DNA of 64,000 nucleotides from Legionella erythra (GTDB lineage: Bacteria > Pseudomonadota > Gammaproteobacteria > Legionellales > Legionellaceae): positions 225,085 through 289,084 of the forward strand of contig NZ_LNYA01000034.1 of NCBI RefSeq assembly GCF_001467615.1, written 5' to 3'. Both the position numbers and the translations under genes were made by a program. How positions within the stretch are numbered: position 1 is the first letter of the stretch; each line of letters begins with the position of its first letter. Below are positions 24,430 through 29,590 of the stretch, in pieces. The notes beneath the pieces were generated by a model. That model did not search any database and was not told the DNA's origin. It saw only the letters and a program-made list of their open reading frames with translations.

Positions 24430-24546
24430 TTTTCTGCGTCACTGCAATTTTGTGCAGTGACGCAGAAAACCAACCATGATTTTACCGAGTAAAATCAAAC
24501 CATTAACGCATTTTGTCCTGGCGCCAGTCTGGCGTCAGGACAAAAT
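24430..24546. repeat. Three successive hairpin-forming inverted repeats
   Basis: Arm pairs are 24430-24446/24453-24469 (17 bases, perfect, 6-base loop), 24478-24485/24489-24496 (8 bases, perfect, 3-base loop) and 24510-24526/24530-24546 (17 bases, one G-T mismatch, 3-base loop). They lie between the csp pseudogene and the first ribozyme. None has the stem-then-T-run of a standard terminator on the plus strand. They may mark a junction or a single-strand-folding site of the element. Confidence 0.7.
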
Positions 24547-24599
24547 TCTTCCCTTCAACCCCTTGCGCAGCAAGCACCACTTTGTTACTTTTTAATGAA

Positions 24600-24653
24600 G
24601 CACAACTGAAGAGCTGGTGTGATTCCAGCGAAACGTAATGCAACGTCTTGTGC
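24600..24653 (+). ncRNA. Type I hammerhead ribozyme, copy A
   Basis: Every invariant core position is present: CTGAAGA (24606-24612), then stem II GCTGG/CCAGC with a 7-base loop, GAA (24630-24632), stem III ACGT/ACGT with loop aatgca, and C at 24647 as the cleavage-site nucleotide. Stem I is GCACAA (24600-24605) with TTGTGC (24648-24653) and is the open stem, making it type I. A further CTTT/AAAG pairing beyond an 8-base bulge could extend stem I. It lies about 345 bases before the recombinase genes. A second copy at 27370 keeps the stems with different bases. Confidence 0.88.
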
Positions 24654-24655
24654 AA

Positions 24656-24700
24656 AGCCACTTTATTCCCTAACTCTGTGGCTGGACGTTCAGTCGGGAA
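24656..24700 (+). ncRNA. H-type pseudoknot following ribozyme A
   Basis: Stem 1 pairs AGCCAC (24656-24661) with GTGGCT (24678-24683). The loop bases TTCCC (24666-24670) pair with GGGAA (24696-24700). The same arrangement occurs after ribozyme B, with TGCCAT/ATGGCA in place of stem 1, so two base pairs have changed together. Spacing from the ribozyme is 3 bases. Confidence 0.78.
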
Positions 24701-24784
24701 AACCATCTAGGAATCTCTGTCATCCGACAGGGCAACTCCCTCGGGAGTTTAAGTCAATTTATTTCAATTTGACCATGGACTTGT

Positions 24785-24811
24785 GACAAAGCCCATTGTT
24801 TTGTCGTTTTT
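24785..24811 (+). terminator. Terminator after ribozyme-pseudoknot unit A
   Basis: GACAAA (24785-24790) pairs with TTTGTC (24800-24805) and is followed by GTTTTT. It lies about 85 bases after the pseudoknot and before the recombinase genes, so it could end a free RNA or act as an attenuator. Confidence 0.55.
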
Positions 24812-24864
24812 ATTAATCAACAACACAAGGAGGAATAACCAGAAAAACTGTTGTAAATCGGCGA

Positions 24865-24886
24865 AATCGTTTGCCTTATAACGATT
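24865..24886. repeat. Inverted repeat upstream of the recombinase genes
   Basis: AATCGTT (24865-24871) and AACGATT (24880-24886) flank an 8-base centre. Arms around a 6-8 base spacer resemble the core sites used by tyrosine recombinases. It could equally be an operator. No second copy was spotted. Confidence 0.35.
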
Positions 24887-24994
24887 GTTTTGCCCCCCAA
24901 CTTCGAGCTTTATGGCTTTTGCCAGGTTTCATCTTTGAGTGAGCCGCTCGACCAACACTAAACCAGAGACAGGGCAAATGAATTTTCGGATTGG

Positions 24995-25801
24995 ATGATG
25001 AGAAAAAATTCCTTAAGACAAGCTGCAAATCGGTACTTCCAACTTGATAACCGAGGGAGCTACCAAGAAAAGAAAAAACGCGCATACGTCATACAAAAGA
25101 TGATTGATGATTTATTCCGTATTGGAGAGGTTCCTGTTTCATGGCAAGACATGAAATCAGAGCATATTCAAAAACTAATTGAATATTGGAAAAGAAACCT
25201 TGTTAAAGACGCAACAATTATGCGTTACATGACAATTATCAGAAATTATTTACACAATATTAATTGTCCAATATCCAATATAGACAACAAGTCTCTACAA
25301 TTGCATCGCAAAAAACTAAAACCCCAACGATTAAAATGGCAACCCAACCTCTGGGAATCGTTCTCTGAAATGACATCACGCATTATTATGGCCTTACAAA
25401 CAGAATTTGGGCTGACTTTTAGTGAAGCAATACATATTAAGCCAGGTGTCCATATCAAAGAGCATAAACTTTCACTCACGAGAGAAATCACTTTTAACTC
25501 GGTGGATAGAACGATCCCCCTCAGAAATGAAATTCAAAAAATCATCTTGTCTGACTTAGAAAAACTAACCAACAGACAAAGCTTAGTACAATTTTTTAGC
25601 TATAAACGGCTCAAACTTAGCTGGAATCATGCCCTCATAGAACTCGACATACCCATAAAAAAATCTTGGCGTTATTTATATGCCAAGAAAATGTATCAAT
25701 ACTTACTGCCAATACTAGGTAACTACCAAACCTGCTTGGTTTTACAAGATGAGCTGGGAATAAAATCCCGTAACACACTATGGACATACCTACATGAGTA
25801 A
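24995..25801 (+). CDS. Tyrosine-recombinase-like protein lacking catalytic residues
   Basis: 268 aa (tandem ATGs at 24995 and 24998). It aligns by eye with the next gene: a SAM-like N-terminal DNA-binding region (QDMKSEHIQKLIEYWKRNL against LKSKHIYVLVQYWKKQ) and a catalytic-type C-terminal region. Where the active gene has FGLRREES this one has FGLTFSEA. Where the active gene has HGLRHAYAQKRY it has KSWRYLYAKKMY. The first Arg and the His-x-x-Arg are therefore lost, while a C-terminal Tyr (TLWTYLHE) remains. It may be a non-catalytic partner, and it overlaps the active gene by 8 bases. Confidence 0.75.
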   Translation: MMRKNSLRQAANRYFQLDNRGSYQEKKKRAYVIQKMIDDLFRIGEVPVSWQDMKSEHIQKLIEYWKRNLVKDATIMRYMTIIRNYLHNINCPISNIDNKSLQLHRKKLKPQRLKWQPNLWESFSEMTSRIIMALQTEFGLTFSEAIHIKPGVHIKEHKLSLTREITFNSVDRTIPLRNEIQKIILSDLEKLTNRQSLVQFFSYKRLKLSWNHALIELDIPIKKSWRYLYAKKMYQYLLPILGNYQTCLVLQDELGIKSRNTLWTYLHE

Positions 25802-26693
25802 ATCAAAACTGAAAAGCGCACTATTTTCTATTAACGAATGCATCAAAGAACTAAATGTATATTCCCATGCCAGTAAAGCTGACACACGCCATATCTTGAA
25901 TCGCTGCATTAAGGATCTACACGAGCAAGGCTTTATGGTAGCTCATATTAAGGGACTAAAATCAAAACACATTTATGTGTTAGTACAATACTGGAAAAAA
26001 CAGGGTAAAACCCCAGCCACTATCAAAAATTACATGTCTAAACTGAGGAAGTTATCCATCTGGCTCAATAAACCAGAATTGATCAAACCTAGCAATGATC
26101 ATTACCAGATTGACAAACGGAATTATATACCTACTTATAATAAAGCCATTACTGACATAAACTTCTCAAAATGCGAAGAGCCAATGATACGTCTGTCTCT
26201 TGAAGCTCAATATCTCTTTGGTTTGCGTCGAGAGGAGTCAATGAAATTGGTTATTAGTGAGGCTTGGAGAGGAGATCGTCTCATATTGAAGCCCAGCTGG
26301 ACCAAAGGCGGTATTGGAAGAGCCATTGATATTACCAACAAAGAACAAAAGGAATGGCTAGAAAAAGCGATTAAACAAATACCGCATGGACATTCATTGA
26401 TCCCAAAAAATAAAACATATAAACAATATCTGAGACAATATCAAACTGAAACAGAAAAGCTAGGATTGAAAAATTGTCATGGTCTGCGTCATGCTTATGC
26501 TCAAAAAAGATATCACGATATAACAAGCCAACTATCGCCTGATAAACAGCCATTTAAATGTTTCATTGAAGGGGGAAAACCGTCTAAATATTTGTCTCAA
26601 TCAGAAAAAGCAATAGATCGTGAAGCCCGTGAAATTATAAGTAGAAACCTCGGTCATTCCAGAGTATCCATAACCAAAAGTTATTTAGGCTAA
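25794..26693 (+). CDS. Tyrosine recombinase / integrase
   Basis: 299 aa with a full catalytic set: Arg in LFGLRREESMKL, Lys near WTKGGIGRA, His-x-x-Arg in HGLRHAYAQKRY, His in RNLGHSRVSI and Tyr in TKSYLG at the extreme C-terminus. The N-terminal 100 residues form the SAM-like arm. It resembles the integrase type of conjugative islands that also carry ssb. It probably integrates and excises the element bounded by tRNA-Pro at 32443. Its stop overlaps the convergent acetyltransferase stop. Confidence 0.87.
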   Translation: MSKSKLKSALFSINECIKELNVYSHASKADTRHILNRCIKDLHEQGFMVAHIKGLKSKHIYVLVQYWKKQGKTPATIKNYMSKLRKLSIWLNKPELIKPSNDHYQIDKRNYIPTYNKAITDINFSKCEEPMIRLSLEAQYLFGLRREESMKLVISEAWRGDRLILKPSWTKGGIGRAIDITNKEQKEWLEKAIKQIPHGHSLIPKNKTYKQYLRQYQTETEKLGLKNCHGLRHAYAQKRYHDITSQLSPDKQPFKCFIEGGKPSKYLSQSEKAIDREAREIISRNLGHSRVSITKSYLG

Positions 26694-27220
26694 CACTTTT
26701 TATTTTTTAGCATTTCAATACACAATTGCATTTTATAGTGTGGCACTGGATGCCATGAGGCTATAAATTCTCCAATAATTTCAAAACCAGCTTTTTTATA
26801 AACATGGACTGCACGCTCATTAGAGATCTCAGGATCAATAAGCACTATTTTGGCATTAGAAAATTGACTTAAGATAAATTCATGAATCATCTGTACTGAT
26901 AATCCCTTACCGATATAATCCAATCTGCAAATAAATAAATCTAGTGTAACCGCATCATCAGGATATTCTTCTGATTTCTCTATTTCAGAAGTAATTAAAT
27001 AAGCGAATGGGGTTTCATTATCATAGGCTATCCAATGAGTAGCCCACGGCTCCCCATCATTTAAAAATTGATCAATATCTTTAATGGTATTACTTAGTCC
27101 TTCACCATGAAGCCATTCATTAATATGTGGCTGATGAATCCACCCAAGAATAAGCTCATGTTGTGATTTATTCACTGGTTTGAAACAAAAACGAAACTCA
27201 TTTTTAGTAACTTTAATCAT
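26690..27220 (-). CDS. GNAT-family N-acetyltransferase
   Basis: 176 aa from ATG 27220; the open frame extends to 27310 but conserved sequence begins at FRFCFKPVNKSQ. The acetyl-CoA-binding region is around LDYIGKGLSVQMIHEF, and the C-terminal NERAVHVYKKAGFEIIGEFI is typical of the fold. It is similar in plan to AAC(6')-type acetyltransferases, but the substrate is not predictable. It is cargo inside the mobility module, oriented against the integrase. Confidence 0.8.
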   Translation of the reverse strand: MIKVTKNEFRFCFKPVNKSQHELILGWIHQPHINEWLHGEGLSNTIKDIDQFLNDGEPWATHWIAYDNETPFAYLITSEIEKSEEYPDDAVTLDLFICRLDYIGKGLSVQMIHEFILSQFSNAKIVLIDPEISNERAVHVYKKAGFEIIGEFIASWHPVPHYKMQLCIEMLKNKKC

Positions 27221-27333
27221 CCAAATTATACCCAAATAGTTGGAAACTAATCCCAAAATTGTATCACTTATCTTGGAGCTATGTATCAATGAATTTTCAA
27301 ATAAGTTCATTTACTATCAATTGAAAAAAGTCC

Positions 27334-27361
27334 TTGATTTCAAGAACTGGCTTGATAATCT
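27334..27361 (+). promoter_or_regulatory. Candidate promoter for ribozyme unit B
   Basis: TTGATT (27334-27339) and TAATCT (27356-27361), preceded by TGA, are 16 bases apart. Initiation would fall at about 27367, only a few bases before stem I of the ribozyme. The -10 match is poor, so this is tentative. Confidence 0.3.
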
Positions 27362-27369
27362 AAAAGCAA

Positions 27370-27417
27370 CACAACTGAAGAGTCAGTGCAACTCTGACGA
27401 AACCTATAGGTCTTGTG
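27370..27417 (+). ncRNA. Type I hammerhead ribozyme, copy B
   Basis: Core CTGAAGA (27375-27381), stem II GTCAG/CTGAC with 7-base loop TGCAACT, GAA (27399-27401), short stem III (ACC/GGT with loop TATA) and C at 27412 as the cleavage nucleotide. Stem I is CACAA (27370-27374) with TTGTG (27413-27417). Compared with copy A, stem II differs at three of five pairs yet still pairs, which is strong evidence for selection on structure. It lies upstream of the 64-aa gene, ssb and ardA. Confidence 0.86.
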
Positions 27418-27420
27418 ATA

Positions 27421-27465
27421 TGCCATCTTGTTCCCTAATTCCATGGCAGAGCGTTTAGCAGGGAA
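27421..27465 (+). ncRNA. H-type pseudoknot following ribozyme B
   Basis: TGCCAT (27421-27426) pairs with ATGGCA (27443-27448). The loop TTCCC (27431-27435) pairs with GGGAA (27461-27465). Geometry and the second stem are the same as after ribozyme A, while stem 1 carries compensatory changes. Confidence 0.78.
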
Positions 27466-27547
27466 ACCCATCCATCAGGAGATGTCTTTACGGCTTTACG
27501 CCCGAGGAGTGCTTTAAGCACATCATCATTAATAATCAGGTAAATCA

Positions 27548-27571
27548 ACCGATGTTTCGGTGATCTTTTTT
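27548..27571 (+). terminator. Terminator after ribozyme-pseudoknot unit B
   Basis: ACCGA (27548-27552) pairs with TCGGT (27557-27561) over a TGTT loop, followed by GATC and six T. It lies 66 bases before the next start codon, so unit B may be a free RNA or an attenuated leader. Confidence 0.55.
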
Positions 27572-27636
27572 GCATAACCCAATCGGGATTTATAGTCCCT
27601 TTGGGGCTAATCCTCCCTATTTCCAAGGAGACTACC

Positions 27637-27831
27637 ATGCAACAACAGGAACCAGCACAACTTGAAATTGAACATTTGCTGTTTGAGCTGAATTGTTGTG
27701 TCAATGATTTAAGTCGTCACCGACTGCAAATTAATCTCTATGACATTCAGCAAGCAGAGTTAAGTTTGCACAAACTGGAATCTCTGATTTCCTTTGTCAA
27801 ACAGTTCGATACTCAACGAATTGCTTGTTAA
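27637..27831 (+). CDS. Small hypothetical protein upstream of ssb
   Basis: 64 aa from ATG 27637, preceded by AAGGAG at 6 bases. The sequence is helical (LEIEHLLFELNCCVNDLSRH) with a Cys pair and no recognised domain. It sits 100 bases before ssb in the mobility module and is probably an accessory protein of the element. Confidence 0.65.
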   Translation: MQQQEPAQLEIEHLLFELNCCVNDLSRHRLQINLYDIQQAELSLHKLESLISFVKQFDTQRIAC

Positions 27832-27930: not shown

Positions 27931-28353
27931 ATGACTGCATCTTTAAACCGCATTCAATTAATCGGCAATCTCGGTGCTGATCCTAAAAGCATCATCCGAA
28001 AAGATGGACAATCTTTTGTCACAGCCACTTTGGCTACCAATGAATCATTCAAACAAAATGATGAATGGCAAAGCAGAGTGGAATGGCATCAGCTGGTGTT
28101 TTTTGGAAAGCTAATCAAAGTCGCTGAATATTTAAAGAAAGGAGCGCAAGTATACCTTGAAGGCAAACTACGCTCTAATCAATGGACTGACAATGAAGGT
28201 AAAGCACGTCAAGCCTTAAATGTTGTTGTCAGCCATATTCAGCTTCTCAGTCCACCCAAATCAGCTGATGAATCAAACAACAAGACCGCAGAACACCATA
28301 TGGCGCAAATGCGTGAAATGTTGCAAACCGATTCAGAAGAAATTCCGTTTTAA
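27931..28353 (+). CDS. ssb: Single-stranded DNA-binding protein of the mobile element
   Basis: 140 aa, AGGAG site. The OB fold starts MTASLNRIQLIGNLGADPKS and includes VEWHQLVFFGKLIKVAEYLK. The acidic C-terminal tip is SEEIPF, equivalent to the usual DDIPF partner-binding tail. It is a second, element-encoded Ssb, as is common on conjugative islands. A pseudoknot lies immediately downstream. Confidence 0.93.
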   Translation: MTASLNRIQLIGNLGADPKSIIRKDGQSFVTATLATNESFKQNDEWQSRVEWHQLVFFGKLIKVAEYLKKGAQVYLEGKLRSNQWTDNEGKARQALNVVVSHIQLLSPPKSADESNNKTAEHHMAQMREMLQTDSEEIPF

Positions 28354-28418: not shown

Positions 28419-28925
28419 ATGGATACCCCTTCAATCTATGTCGCTTGTTTAGCATCCTATAACAATGCCTTCTTGCATGGCATCTGGATAGATGCTACAC
28501 AAAGCGAAGATGAAATCATGGAAGAAATTTGGGAAATGCTGGATAACAGCCCTGAATCTAATGCTGAAGAATACGCCATACACGATTATGAAGGATTCGG
28601 CAGCATCCAAATCCATGAGTACGAAGCAATAACCAATATTGTGGAGTATGCCTCATTTATTCAAGAACACGGCGAGCTAGGATTAGCCCTTCTCTGTGAT
28701 TATTCAGTAGATGATGCACAAACTATGTTGGAGGATCATTACCAAGGTTGTTATGATTCAGAGGTTGATTTTGCCAGACAGTTGTTTGATGAGTGTTATG
28801 CCCATCAATTACCGGATAGTTTGATCTGCTATTTTGATTATGAGGCTTTTGCTCGTGATCTTTTCATCAGTGATTATTATTCAGTGGATGTTGATGGACA
28901 GACGCATGTTTTTTCAAGGTATTAA
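28419..28925 (+). CDS. ardA: Antirestriction protein ArdA
   Basis: 168 aa from ATG 28419, which has AAGGAGA upstream (the frame is open to 28389 but overlaps the pseudoknot). ArdA is an elongated acidic DNA mimic that blocks type I restriction enzymes. The family opening IYVACLASYNNAFLHGIWID and the acidic YAIHDYEGFGSIQIHEYE segment are clear. It protects entering element DNA. Confidence 0.9.
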   Translation: MDTPSIYVACLASYNNAFLHGIWIDATQSEDEIMEEIWEMLDNSPESNAEEYAIHDYEGFGSIQIHEYEAITNIVEYASFIQEHGELGLALLCDYSVDDAQTMLEDHYQGCYDSEVDFARQLFDECYAHQLPDSLICYFDYEAFARDLFISDYYSVDVDGQTHVFSRY

Positions 28926-29115: not shown

Positions 29116-29124
29116 TGCTATAAT
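29116..29124 (+). promoter_or_regulatory. Extended -10 promoter of the toxin-antitoxin pair
   Basis: TG-C-TATAAT is a consensus extended -10 box, 20 bases before the antitoxin start at 29144. The -35 is weak, as extended -10 promoters allow. Confidence 0.5.
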
Positions 29125-29143
29125 GACTTTAATGGGAGAGTAT

Positions 29144-29590
29144 ATGAATAGTGTATTTCAAGTAGCTGATTATTTTCTTAACAAAGCATCTAAAGAAGAA
29201 GATGGTGGCGAAATTATTTCAAATCTTAAATTACAAAAATTGGTTTATTATGCCCAAGGATTTCACTTGGCTATGTATAATCAACCATTATACACAGAAT
29301 CTTTAGAAGCATGGACACATGGTCCTGTGTGCCCGGACTTATATCATGATAAAAAGAAATACAAAAATGGCGCAGTGGAGCCAAACACCAATTTTGATGC
29401 TTCTGTATTCTCAAAAGAACAAAAAGATTTACTAGATGAAATCTATGAAGTTTATGGGCAATTTTCAGCTTGGAAACTCAGAAACTTAACTCATGAAGAA
29501 GCACCTTGGAAAGATAATTTAGACAATGATAATAATAACCTTATTTCTCATGAAGACTTAAAAAAATATTTTAAAACCCAATTAAATTGA
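29144..29590 (+). CDS. Panacea-domain (SocA-like, DUF4065) antitoxin
   Basis: 148 aa from ATG 29144, with GGGAGAG well placed. The Panacea signature is clear: LQKLVYYAQGFHLAMYNQPL, then EAWTHGPVCPDLYHDKKKY. Panacea domains serve as antitoxins for many unrelated toxins. The partner starts 2 bases after its stop. It is typical island-maintenance cargo. Confidence 0.88.
   Translation: MNSVFQVADYFLNKASKEEDGGEIISNLKLQKLVYYAQGFHLAMYNQPLYTESLEAWTHGPVCPDLYHDKKKYKNGAVEPNTNFDASVFSKEQKDLLDEIYEVYGQFSAWKLRNLTHEEAPWKDNLDNDNNNLISHEDLKKYFKTQLN

What the first reader, a model, noticed from the sequence alone, without database searches (positions are those of the whole stretch)
24600..27417. Two type I hammerhead ribozymes bracket the recombinase genes
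Both copies (24600-24653 and 27370-27417, same strand) contain all invariant hammerhead core bases, a C at the cleavage position and three pairing stems. Stem II differs in sequence between copies but still pairs. Cleavage of a long transcript at both sites (after 24647 and 27412) would release a 2.77-kb RNA carrying both recombinase messages, and would give the ssb/ardA transcript a new 5'-OH end. Hammerheads are known in bacteria and near integrases, but paired copies at a recombinase module are unusual.
Basis: partly seen in the sequence, partly recalled or inferred. Interest (0 to 1): 0.92.

Follow-up and report, generated by a model that had tools for sequence, protein, structure and literature searches.

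The report
Hammerhead ribozymes at mobile-gene transcript starts
Two self-cutting RNA motifs that seemed to bracket a pair of recombinase genes look instead like the starts of two separate messages, each beginning with a hammerhead ribozyme joined to a knotted RNA fold, a layout repeated in Legionella relatives ahead of genes of mobile DNA.

Summary
Both hammerheads are where stated: intact type I cores, GUC sites, cleavage after 24647 and 27412. Rfam's hammerhead model does not accept them at its cut-off, but 47 related sequences covary well above shuffles. The "bracket" is not the best reading. Each hammerhead is fused to a downstream H-type pseudoknot; in copy 1 its 3' half begins the orphan motif RAGATH-32. 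All 82 RAGATH-32 loci examined match the fusion model. A weak sigma-70-like promoter sits in register: in 37 of 53 non-redundant units it is the best of 96 positions (expected 5), so transcription should start at stem I. Cleavage would then discard about 50 nt and leave a 5'-hydroxyl mRNA with a pseudoknot near its end. 154 of 165 units precede recombinase or small-ORF/ssb/ardA genes; 41 of 82 loci show one unit only. Three units from other families keep the fold with different letters before related genes. New variant of a known kind, resembling the engineered RiboJ insulator. No cleavage or 5' end was measured.

The parts
24563..24591 (+). predicted promoter of unit 1: TTGCGC, 17 nt, TACTTT; -10 ends 6 nt before the R1 match
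   Evidence: (rank 2 of 96 positions here; a site at this place recurs across units); not listed by the generic scan
24600..24653 (+). hammerhead 1, type I, cleavage after C24647
   Evidence: R1 match 24598-24701, 110.7 bits (this sequence is in the model's alignment)
24656..24700 (+). pseudoknot 1: P1 AGCCAC/GUGGCU, P2 UUCCC/GGGAA, P3 GAC-GUUCA-GUC
   Evidence: covariation; 1 of 200 shuffles as good
24678..24756 (+). RAGATH-32 (RF02922): 3' half of pseudoknot 1 and following hairpins
   Evidence: 99.7 bits, cut-off 41.8
24884..24979 (+). RAGATH-13 (RF02688), ends 15 nt before the rec1 start codon
   Evidence: 101.7 bits, cut-off 80
24995..25801 (+). rec1: recombinase-like protein, phage integrase N-terminal domain only, probably without catalytic residues
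   Evidence: PF12834; alignment; the reading of catalytic residues is mine
25794..26693 (+). rec2: tyrosine recombinase (integrase)
   Evidence: PF12834 + PF12835; R145, H229, R232, H288, Y297 identical in both genome copies
26690..27310 (-). GNAT acetyltransferase, variable cargo between the two units
   Evidence: PF13523; other content at this place in other loci
27334..27361 (+). predicted promoter of unit 2: TTGATT, 16 nt, TAATCT; -10 ends 5 nt before the R1 match
   Evidence: (rank 1 of 96); not listed by the generic scan
27370..27417 (+). hammerhead 2, type I, cleavage after C27412
   Evidence: R1 match 27367-27466, 110.4 bits (this sequence is in the model's alignment)
27421..27465 (+). 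pseudoknot 2: P1 UGCCAU/AUGGCA, P2 UUCCC/GGGAA, P3 GC-GUUUA-GC
   Evidence: covariation; 2 of 200 shuffles as good; only 16.2 bits to RAGATH-32
27637..27831 (+). orf76 (my label): small conserved protein, 64 aa from this ATG, 76 aa from an upstream TTG; first gene of unit 2
   Evidence: found after 62 of 165 units; no Pfam match
27931..28353 (+). ssb, single-strand DNA-binding protein
   Evidence: PF00436, E 7.6e-27
28419..28925 (+). ardA, antirestriction protein (the frame listed runs from 28389)
   Evidence: PF07275, E 7.7e-41

Best explanation
Each copy is a composite 5' leader of its own transcription unit, not one half of a bracket. RNA polymerase starts at, or within a few nucleotides of, stem I of the hammerhead. 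The hammerhead self-cleaves after GUC and discards the first ~50 nt, which include the catalytic core and the 5'-triphosphate. The remaining mRNA (rec1-rec2, or orf76-ssb-ardA) begins with a 5'-hydroxyl, and a compact H-type pseudoknot follows about 8-9 nt later. The likely purpose is to give the establishment genes of an integrative conjugative element standard, decay-resistant 5' ends. Shown here: composite structure, covariation, conserved promoter-like position, gene association, persistence in other families. Inferred: actual start sites, cleavage, and the stabilising role (that last step about 0.4 on its own).
For: 47-sequence alignment: 94.2% of cells paired vs 82.8% shuffled; 17 of 29 pairs change on both sides vs 11.4 shuffled; score 0.348 vs 0.148 shuffled and at most 0.057 when slid. 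R1 matches at the right place in all 82 RAGATH-32 loci examined; part of these loci are in the model's own alignment. 162 of 165 matches keep CUGANGA..GAAA. Promoter: in 37 of 53 non-redundant units the best of 96 sigma-70-like positions has its -10 starting 9-17 nt before the match, expected 5.0; all 4 non-Legionellaceae units rank 1. Cleavage site to P1 8-9 nt in 124 of 159 measured. 154 of 165 units followed within 1.8 kb by rec1(-rec2) or orf76/ssb/ardA genes. Outside the family: L183 before a rec1 homologue (28% identity, E 1e-22), L185 before ArdA, L186 before SSB; the same pseudoknot with other letters in all three. L118 has three units of the second type in tandem, each with its own upstream promoter-like site. 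ICE context: type IV secretion genes and traD upstream in L207, with one hypothetical gene between.
Against: No RNA data of any kind. The generic promoter scan lists neither window site; window unit 1 ranks second to a site 45 nt upstream; on 151 units only half score above the 95% level of random positions. Rfam's hammerhead model is not satisfied. Window hammerheads are no more stable than shuffles, and the two copies of the second module do not fold as hammerheads at minimum free energy. Two of the 29 pairs (outer stem I, outer P3) fail in 25 of 47 sequences and P2 hardly varies within the family. L184 has a hammerhead but no pseudoknot found. Three of 165 cores are mutated; 11 of 165 units have no recognised gene downstream. 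Distance to P1 came out as 13 nt in 24 of 159, perhaps another helix. Read-through from upstream is not excluded. The binomial assumes uniform placement and independent units.
Confidence: 0.72

Rival explanations
1. One reading: one long transcript is cut at both hammerheads, releasing a 2.77-kb recombinase mRNA and a 5'-hydroxyl ssb/ardA mRNA.
For: Same strand, intact cores, two units in 40 of 82 loci and four in one; clustered hammerheads flanking genes in prophages were proposed to do this, and arrays from A. tumefaciens, A. caulinodans and C. scindens cut long transcripts in vitro (PMC3088659 section 6).
Against: Own promoter-like site at each unit; single-unit loci and genomes; opposite-strand genes and variable cargo between.
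Confidence: 0.12
2. Circular RNA: both cuts followed by ligation give a circular recombinase RNA, as in viroid-like RNAs and retrozymes.
For: Type I hammerheads leave ends that can be ligated; in the window, as in 11 of 34 unit pairs, the hybrid stem (copy 2 5' arm with copy 1 3' arm) pairs 5 of 5.
Against: The hybrid pairs fully in only 2 of 9 distinct arm combinations, own stems in 9 of 9 and 8 of 9 (the scan asked for at least 4 own pairs, so that comparison is biased towards own stems); single-unit loci.
Confidence: 0.03
3. Regulated switch: the pseudoknot binds a protein or small molecule that controls hammerhead cleavage or translation.
For: Near-constant hammerhead-pseudoknot spacing; conserved unpaired letters around UUCCCUAA and GUUYAG within Legionellaceae; RAGATH-32 is typed Cis-reg and RAGATH-13 lies just before the rec1 start.
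Against: The pseudoknot shares no nucleotides with the hammerhead stems, so no alternative pairing is apparent; the loop letters are not kept in the other families.
Confidence: 0.2
4. DNA-level element: a folded single-strand recombination site used by the recombinases, resembling integron attC, with hammerhead likeness incidental.
For: Cargo varies next to the second unit and two extra units sit in tandem in L118.
Against: Unpaired catalytic letters kept in 162 of 165, G-U pairs accepted, promoter in register.
Confidence: 0.04

Closest known systems
Bacterial and phage hammerhead ribozymes near integrase and ardA genes (Perreault et al. 2011, PMC3088659; section 6, first part of section 11 and passages seen)
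   Same: Hammerheads near integrases; ardA directly downstream of a hammerhead in three Legionella strains is already stated there; clustered copies flanking genes; in haloviruses HF1/HF2 a transcript 5' end maps within 3 nt of a hammerhead cleavage site.
   Different: In the parts seen there is no pseudoknot downstream of the ribozyme (the one described joins stems I and II) and no promoter placed so that transcription begins at stem I; the proposed role was cutting of long transcripts.
RAGATH-32 (RF02922) and RAGATH-13 (RF02688), Rfam
   Same: Unit 1 contains both above their cut-offs.
   Different: The RAGATH-32 model starts inside the pseudoknot and lacks its 5' half and the hammerhead; all 82 RAGATH-32 loci examined (of 114 listed) have an R1 match there, three of them with mutated cores. 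The composite also occurs where RAGATH-32 falls below its cut-off (unit 2).
RiboJ insulator (engineered; PMC6206723, passages seen)
   Same: Hammerhead at the promoter junction, followed by a structured element that stays at the new 5' end after cleavage; reported to raise mRNA and protein levels.
   Different: RiboJ is an sTRSV-derived ribozyme plus a 23-nt hairpin, man-made; here the follower is an H-type pseudoknot, natural and repeated per transcription unit.
Viroid-like circular RNAs and retrozymes (recalled)
   Same: Two hammerheads of one polarity around a segment.
   Different: Junction stem not conserved, single units common, protein-coding operons downstream.

Membership tests
Type I hammerhead ribozyme | Invariant core CUGANGA, GAAA and NUH cleavage triplet | tested here: met
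   CUGANGA..GAAA in 162 of 165 homologous units
Type I hammerhead ribozyme | Three helices with stem I open, supported by covariation | tested here: met
   changes on both sides in 7 of 7 stem I, 4 of 5 stem II and 1 of 3 stem III pairs; outermost stem I pairs often absent
Type I hammerhead ribozyme | Rfam Hammerhead_1 gathering score (a detection cut-off, not a mechanistic feature) | tested here: not met
   21.7 bits vs 34 for copy 2; copy 1 not listed
Type I hammerhead ribozyme | Self-cleavage | not testable with these tools
   no RNA data
RAGATH-32 | Covariance model above gathering score | tested here: met
   unit 1: 99.7 vs 41.8 bits; unit 2 only 16.2, so unit 2 is not filed as RAGATH-32
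RAGATH-13 | Covariance model above gathering score | tested here: met
   101.7 vs 80 bits; ribozyme activity not tested
RiboJ-like 5' processing leader (works like) | Ribozyme at the promoter junction, structured element kept after cleavage | tested here: met
   by sequence position only; effect on expression not tested
Circular hammerhead RNA (viroid-like, retrozyme) | Junction stem able to re-form from the distal 5' arm and the proximal 3' arm | tested here: not met
   fully paired in 2 of 9 distinct combinations, 11 of 34 unit pairs including the window's

The most novel reading that the evidence does not exclude
A mobile-element gene-expression system in which each establishment operon begins with a hammerhead fused to a pseudoknot, transcribed from its first base, so that these mRNAs carry 5'-hydroxyl, pseudoknot-protected ends; a natural counterpart of RiboJ kept, with much changed sequence, in several families of one bacterial class, in which RAGATH-32 is the truncated tail of a larger ribozyme leader.
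Probability: 0.6. Interest if true: 0.82.

Novelty: new variant of a known kind. Interest (0 to 1): 0.72.

Why it matters
The function of bacterial hammerheads was called unclear in 2011 (PMC3088659). Here the position relative to the promoter and an attached pseudoknot give a concrete, testable role: making 5'-hydroxyl mRNAs for genes that a conjugative element needs at establishment. It places an orphan Rfam motif (RAGATH-32) in a larger RNA, warns that start-site mapping which depends on 5'-phosphates would miss or misplace these ends, and shows evolution reaching the layout that synthetic biologists built as RiboJ.

Tried and rejected
Rfam hammerhead models as the arbiter: below cut-off, so replaced by comparative evidence. 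Bracket model: weakened. Circular RNA: junction stem not conserved. Folding energy as evidence: uninformative. Generic promoter scan: lists neither site and finds fewer sites than shuffles (6 vs 12.6). The palindrome at 24510-24546 as an intrinsic terminator for this strand: no T run follows it and it is not in the terminator list. ArdA relatives in viral contigs: none confirmed. In phages I took 4 of 136 records; one (L203, Pelagibacter phage) has a type I hammerhead by a loose scan, before marR and integrase genes, not pursued. Plasmid ArdA hits (4105 records) were not followed. tRNA-Pro as attachment site: its 3' end is not repeated in the window. Phylum-wide draw with R1: 1 of 398 genomes, the window's own. 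Papers: 9 searches, of which I saw listings; only PMC3088659 and PMC6206723 were opened, in part. No listed title or abstract start mentions a pseudoknot behind a bacterial hammerhead leader, and 'RAGATH-32' occurs in no held paper. Subscription papers, including those that named the RAGATH motifs (recalled), were not available.
Full report
1. They fold as hammerheads at minimum free energy, though not more stably than shuffled sequence. The case therefore rests on comparison.

2. Surroundings. Rfam finds two other motifs between hammerhead 1 and rec1: RAGATH-32 at 24678-24756 and RAGATH-13 at 24884-24979. The window's genome holds a second RAGATH-32 and, on the same strand, a second hammerhead pair about 5.7 kb apart with the same plan: hammerhead, RAGATH-32, rec1, rec2, cargo (three further tyrosine recombinases), hammerhead, small ORF, ssb, ardA. 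Relatives of rec2 in public genomes were all from Legionella (17 of 17 loci), so the window is taken to be Legionella. An annotated relative in L. adelaidensis has the module after type IV secretion genes and traD, with one hypothetical gene between, and aminoglycoside phosphotransferase and GNAT genes as cargo, i.e. in what looks like an integrative conjugative element.

3. A composite RNA. RAGATH-32 matched 64 of 143 Legionellaceae genomes (53 over its cut-off) and, in a class-wide draw, 3 of 369, all Legionellaceae. I examined 82 of the 114 matches. A strict scan found a hammerhead with its cleavage site 30-32 nt upstream of RAGATH-32 in 74 of the 82; of the 8 misses, 3 have mutated cores and the others stem mismatches. 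A covariance model later matched all 82 at that place. Between hammerhead and RAGATH-32 lies the 5' half of a pseudoknot whose 3' half is the start of RAGATH-32. The second hammerhead has the same pseudoknot with other letters, too different for RAGATH-32 (16.2 bits). In 47 aligned units the structure, pseudoknot included, pairs in 94.2% of cells (82.8% shuffled); 17 of 29 pairs change on both sides (11.4 shuffled); sliding destroys it. Within the family P2 hardly varies, and the outermost pairs of stem I and P3 fail in about half the sequences. Model R1, built from this alignment, finds units in 85 of 143 Legionellaceae genomes and in four genomes of three other families of the class. In L183, L185 and L186, from those three families, the program recovers P1, P2 and P3 in the same order with quite different letters (3, 4 and 1 of 200 shuffles as good); in L184 it finds none. 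The fourth genome, G329, gave only a partial match near a contig end and was not examined.

4. Promoters. Upstream of the units lies a TTG.. / 16-18 nt / TA...T site at nearly constant distance. In 53 non-redundant units the best of 96 positions falls in the 9-nt window before the ribozyme 37 times (expected 5.0); 13 of the other 16 rank second or third there; all four non-Legionellaceae units rank first. On 151 units before thinning the fraction was 61%, against 9% expected, and half of the units score above the 95% level of random positions. The sites are weak by consensus and the generic scan does not list those of the window. With the -10 box ending 4-10 nt before the match, the start should lie at the first bases of stem I.

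5. Genes. 154 of 165 units are followed within 1.8 kb by rec1(-rec2) (91) or by orf76, ssb and ardA in some combination (63); 11 by neither. Most of these loci were chosen through RAGATH-32 or R1 in one family, so the units are not independent. Outside Legionellaceae L183 precedes a rec1 homologue, L185 ArdA and L186 SSB; since those units were found by the RNA model alone, this is independent support that leader and genes belong together. Units occur singly: 41 of 82 loci show one, 34 of these with at least 8.8 kb of downstream sequence held; 40 show two; L118 shows four, three of the second type in tandem. In L078 and L084 a second unit lies just beyond the fetched stretch, so single-unit counts per locus are upper bounds. 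24 of 85 genomes gave one match only.

6. Mechanism. The simplest reading is a 5' leader: start at stem I, self-cleave, leave a 5'-hydroxyl mRNA with a pseudoknot about 8-9 nt from its end (124 of 159 measured). 5'-hydroxyl ends are poor substrates for the 5'-end-dependent decay of gammaproteobacteria (RNase E pathway; recalled), so stabilisation is the likeliest benefit, but this is inference. The bracket and circular readings predict paired units and a shared junction stem; neither is conserved. A regulated version, with the pseudoknot as receptor, remains open.

7. Known or new. Perreault et al. 2011 (PMC3088659; section 6, first part of section 11 and passages seen) already report bacterial hammerheads near integrases, ardA just downstream of a hammerhead in three Legionella strains, clustered copies flanking genes, and active arrays in vitro. 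New here, as far as the listings of nine searches of the held library show, are the fused pseudoknot, RAGATH-32 as part of it, the start-site position, and the repetition per operon. The engineered RiboJ (PMC6206723, passages) is the closest functional analogue.

Noticed in passing
window 24430-24469 and 24510-24546: Two strong palindromes upstream of promoter 1. The second recurs before first-type units with changed inner letters that still pair, while outer TTTTGTCC/GGACAAAA is often kept; no T run follows. Might be a transfer origin or single-strand hairpin.
   Followed up: partly
window 24995-25801: rec1 is a degenerate recombinase overlapping rec2: the arginine of rec2's FGLRREE is T in FGLTFSE and no HxxR is seen; a partner protein is likely. 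The FGLT stretch is kept in the distant L183 homologue.
   Followed up: partly
L118:2924-8900: Four hammerhead-pseudoknot units in one module, three in tandem after rec2 with small ORFs or remnants between them.
   Followed up: partly
L006:7920-11174 (own genome, C34): Three consecutive tyrosine recombinases (RIT-like trio, name recalled) between rec2 and the second unit.
   Followed up: no
window 27469-27630: By eye, the leader between pseudoknot 2 and orf76 has further hairpins and a stretch that could mask the ribosome site; similar letters in L006.
   Followed up: no
L203:4324-4372: Type I hammerhead-like motif before marR and integrase genes in Pelagibacter phage Jormungand.
   Followed up: no
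window 29123-29587: SocA/Panacea antitoxin-domain gene downstream of ardA, a possible toxin-antitoxin remnant.
   Followed up: no
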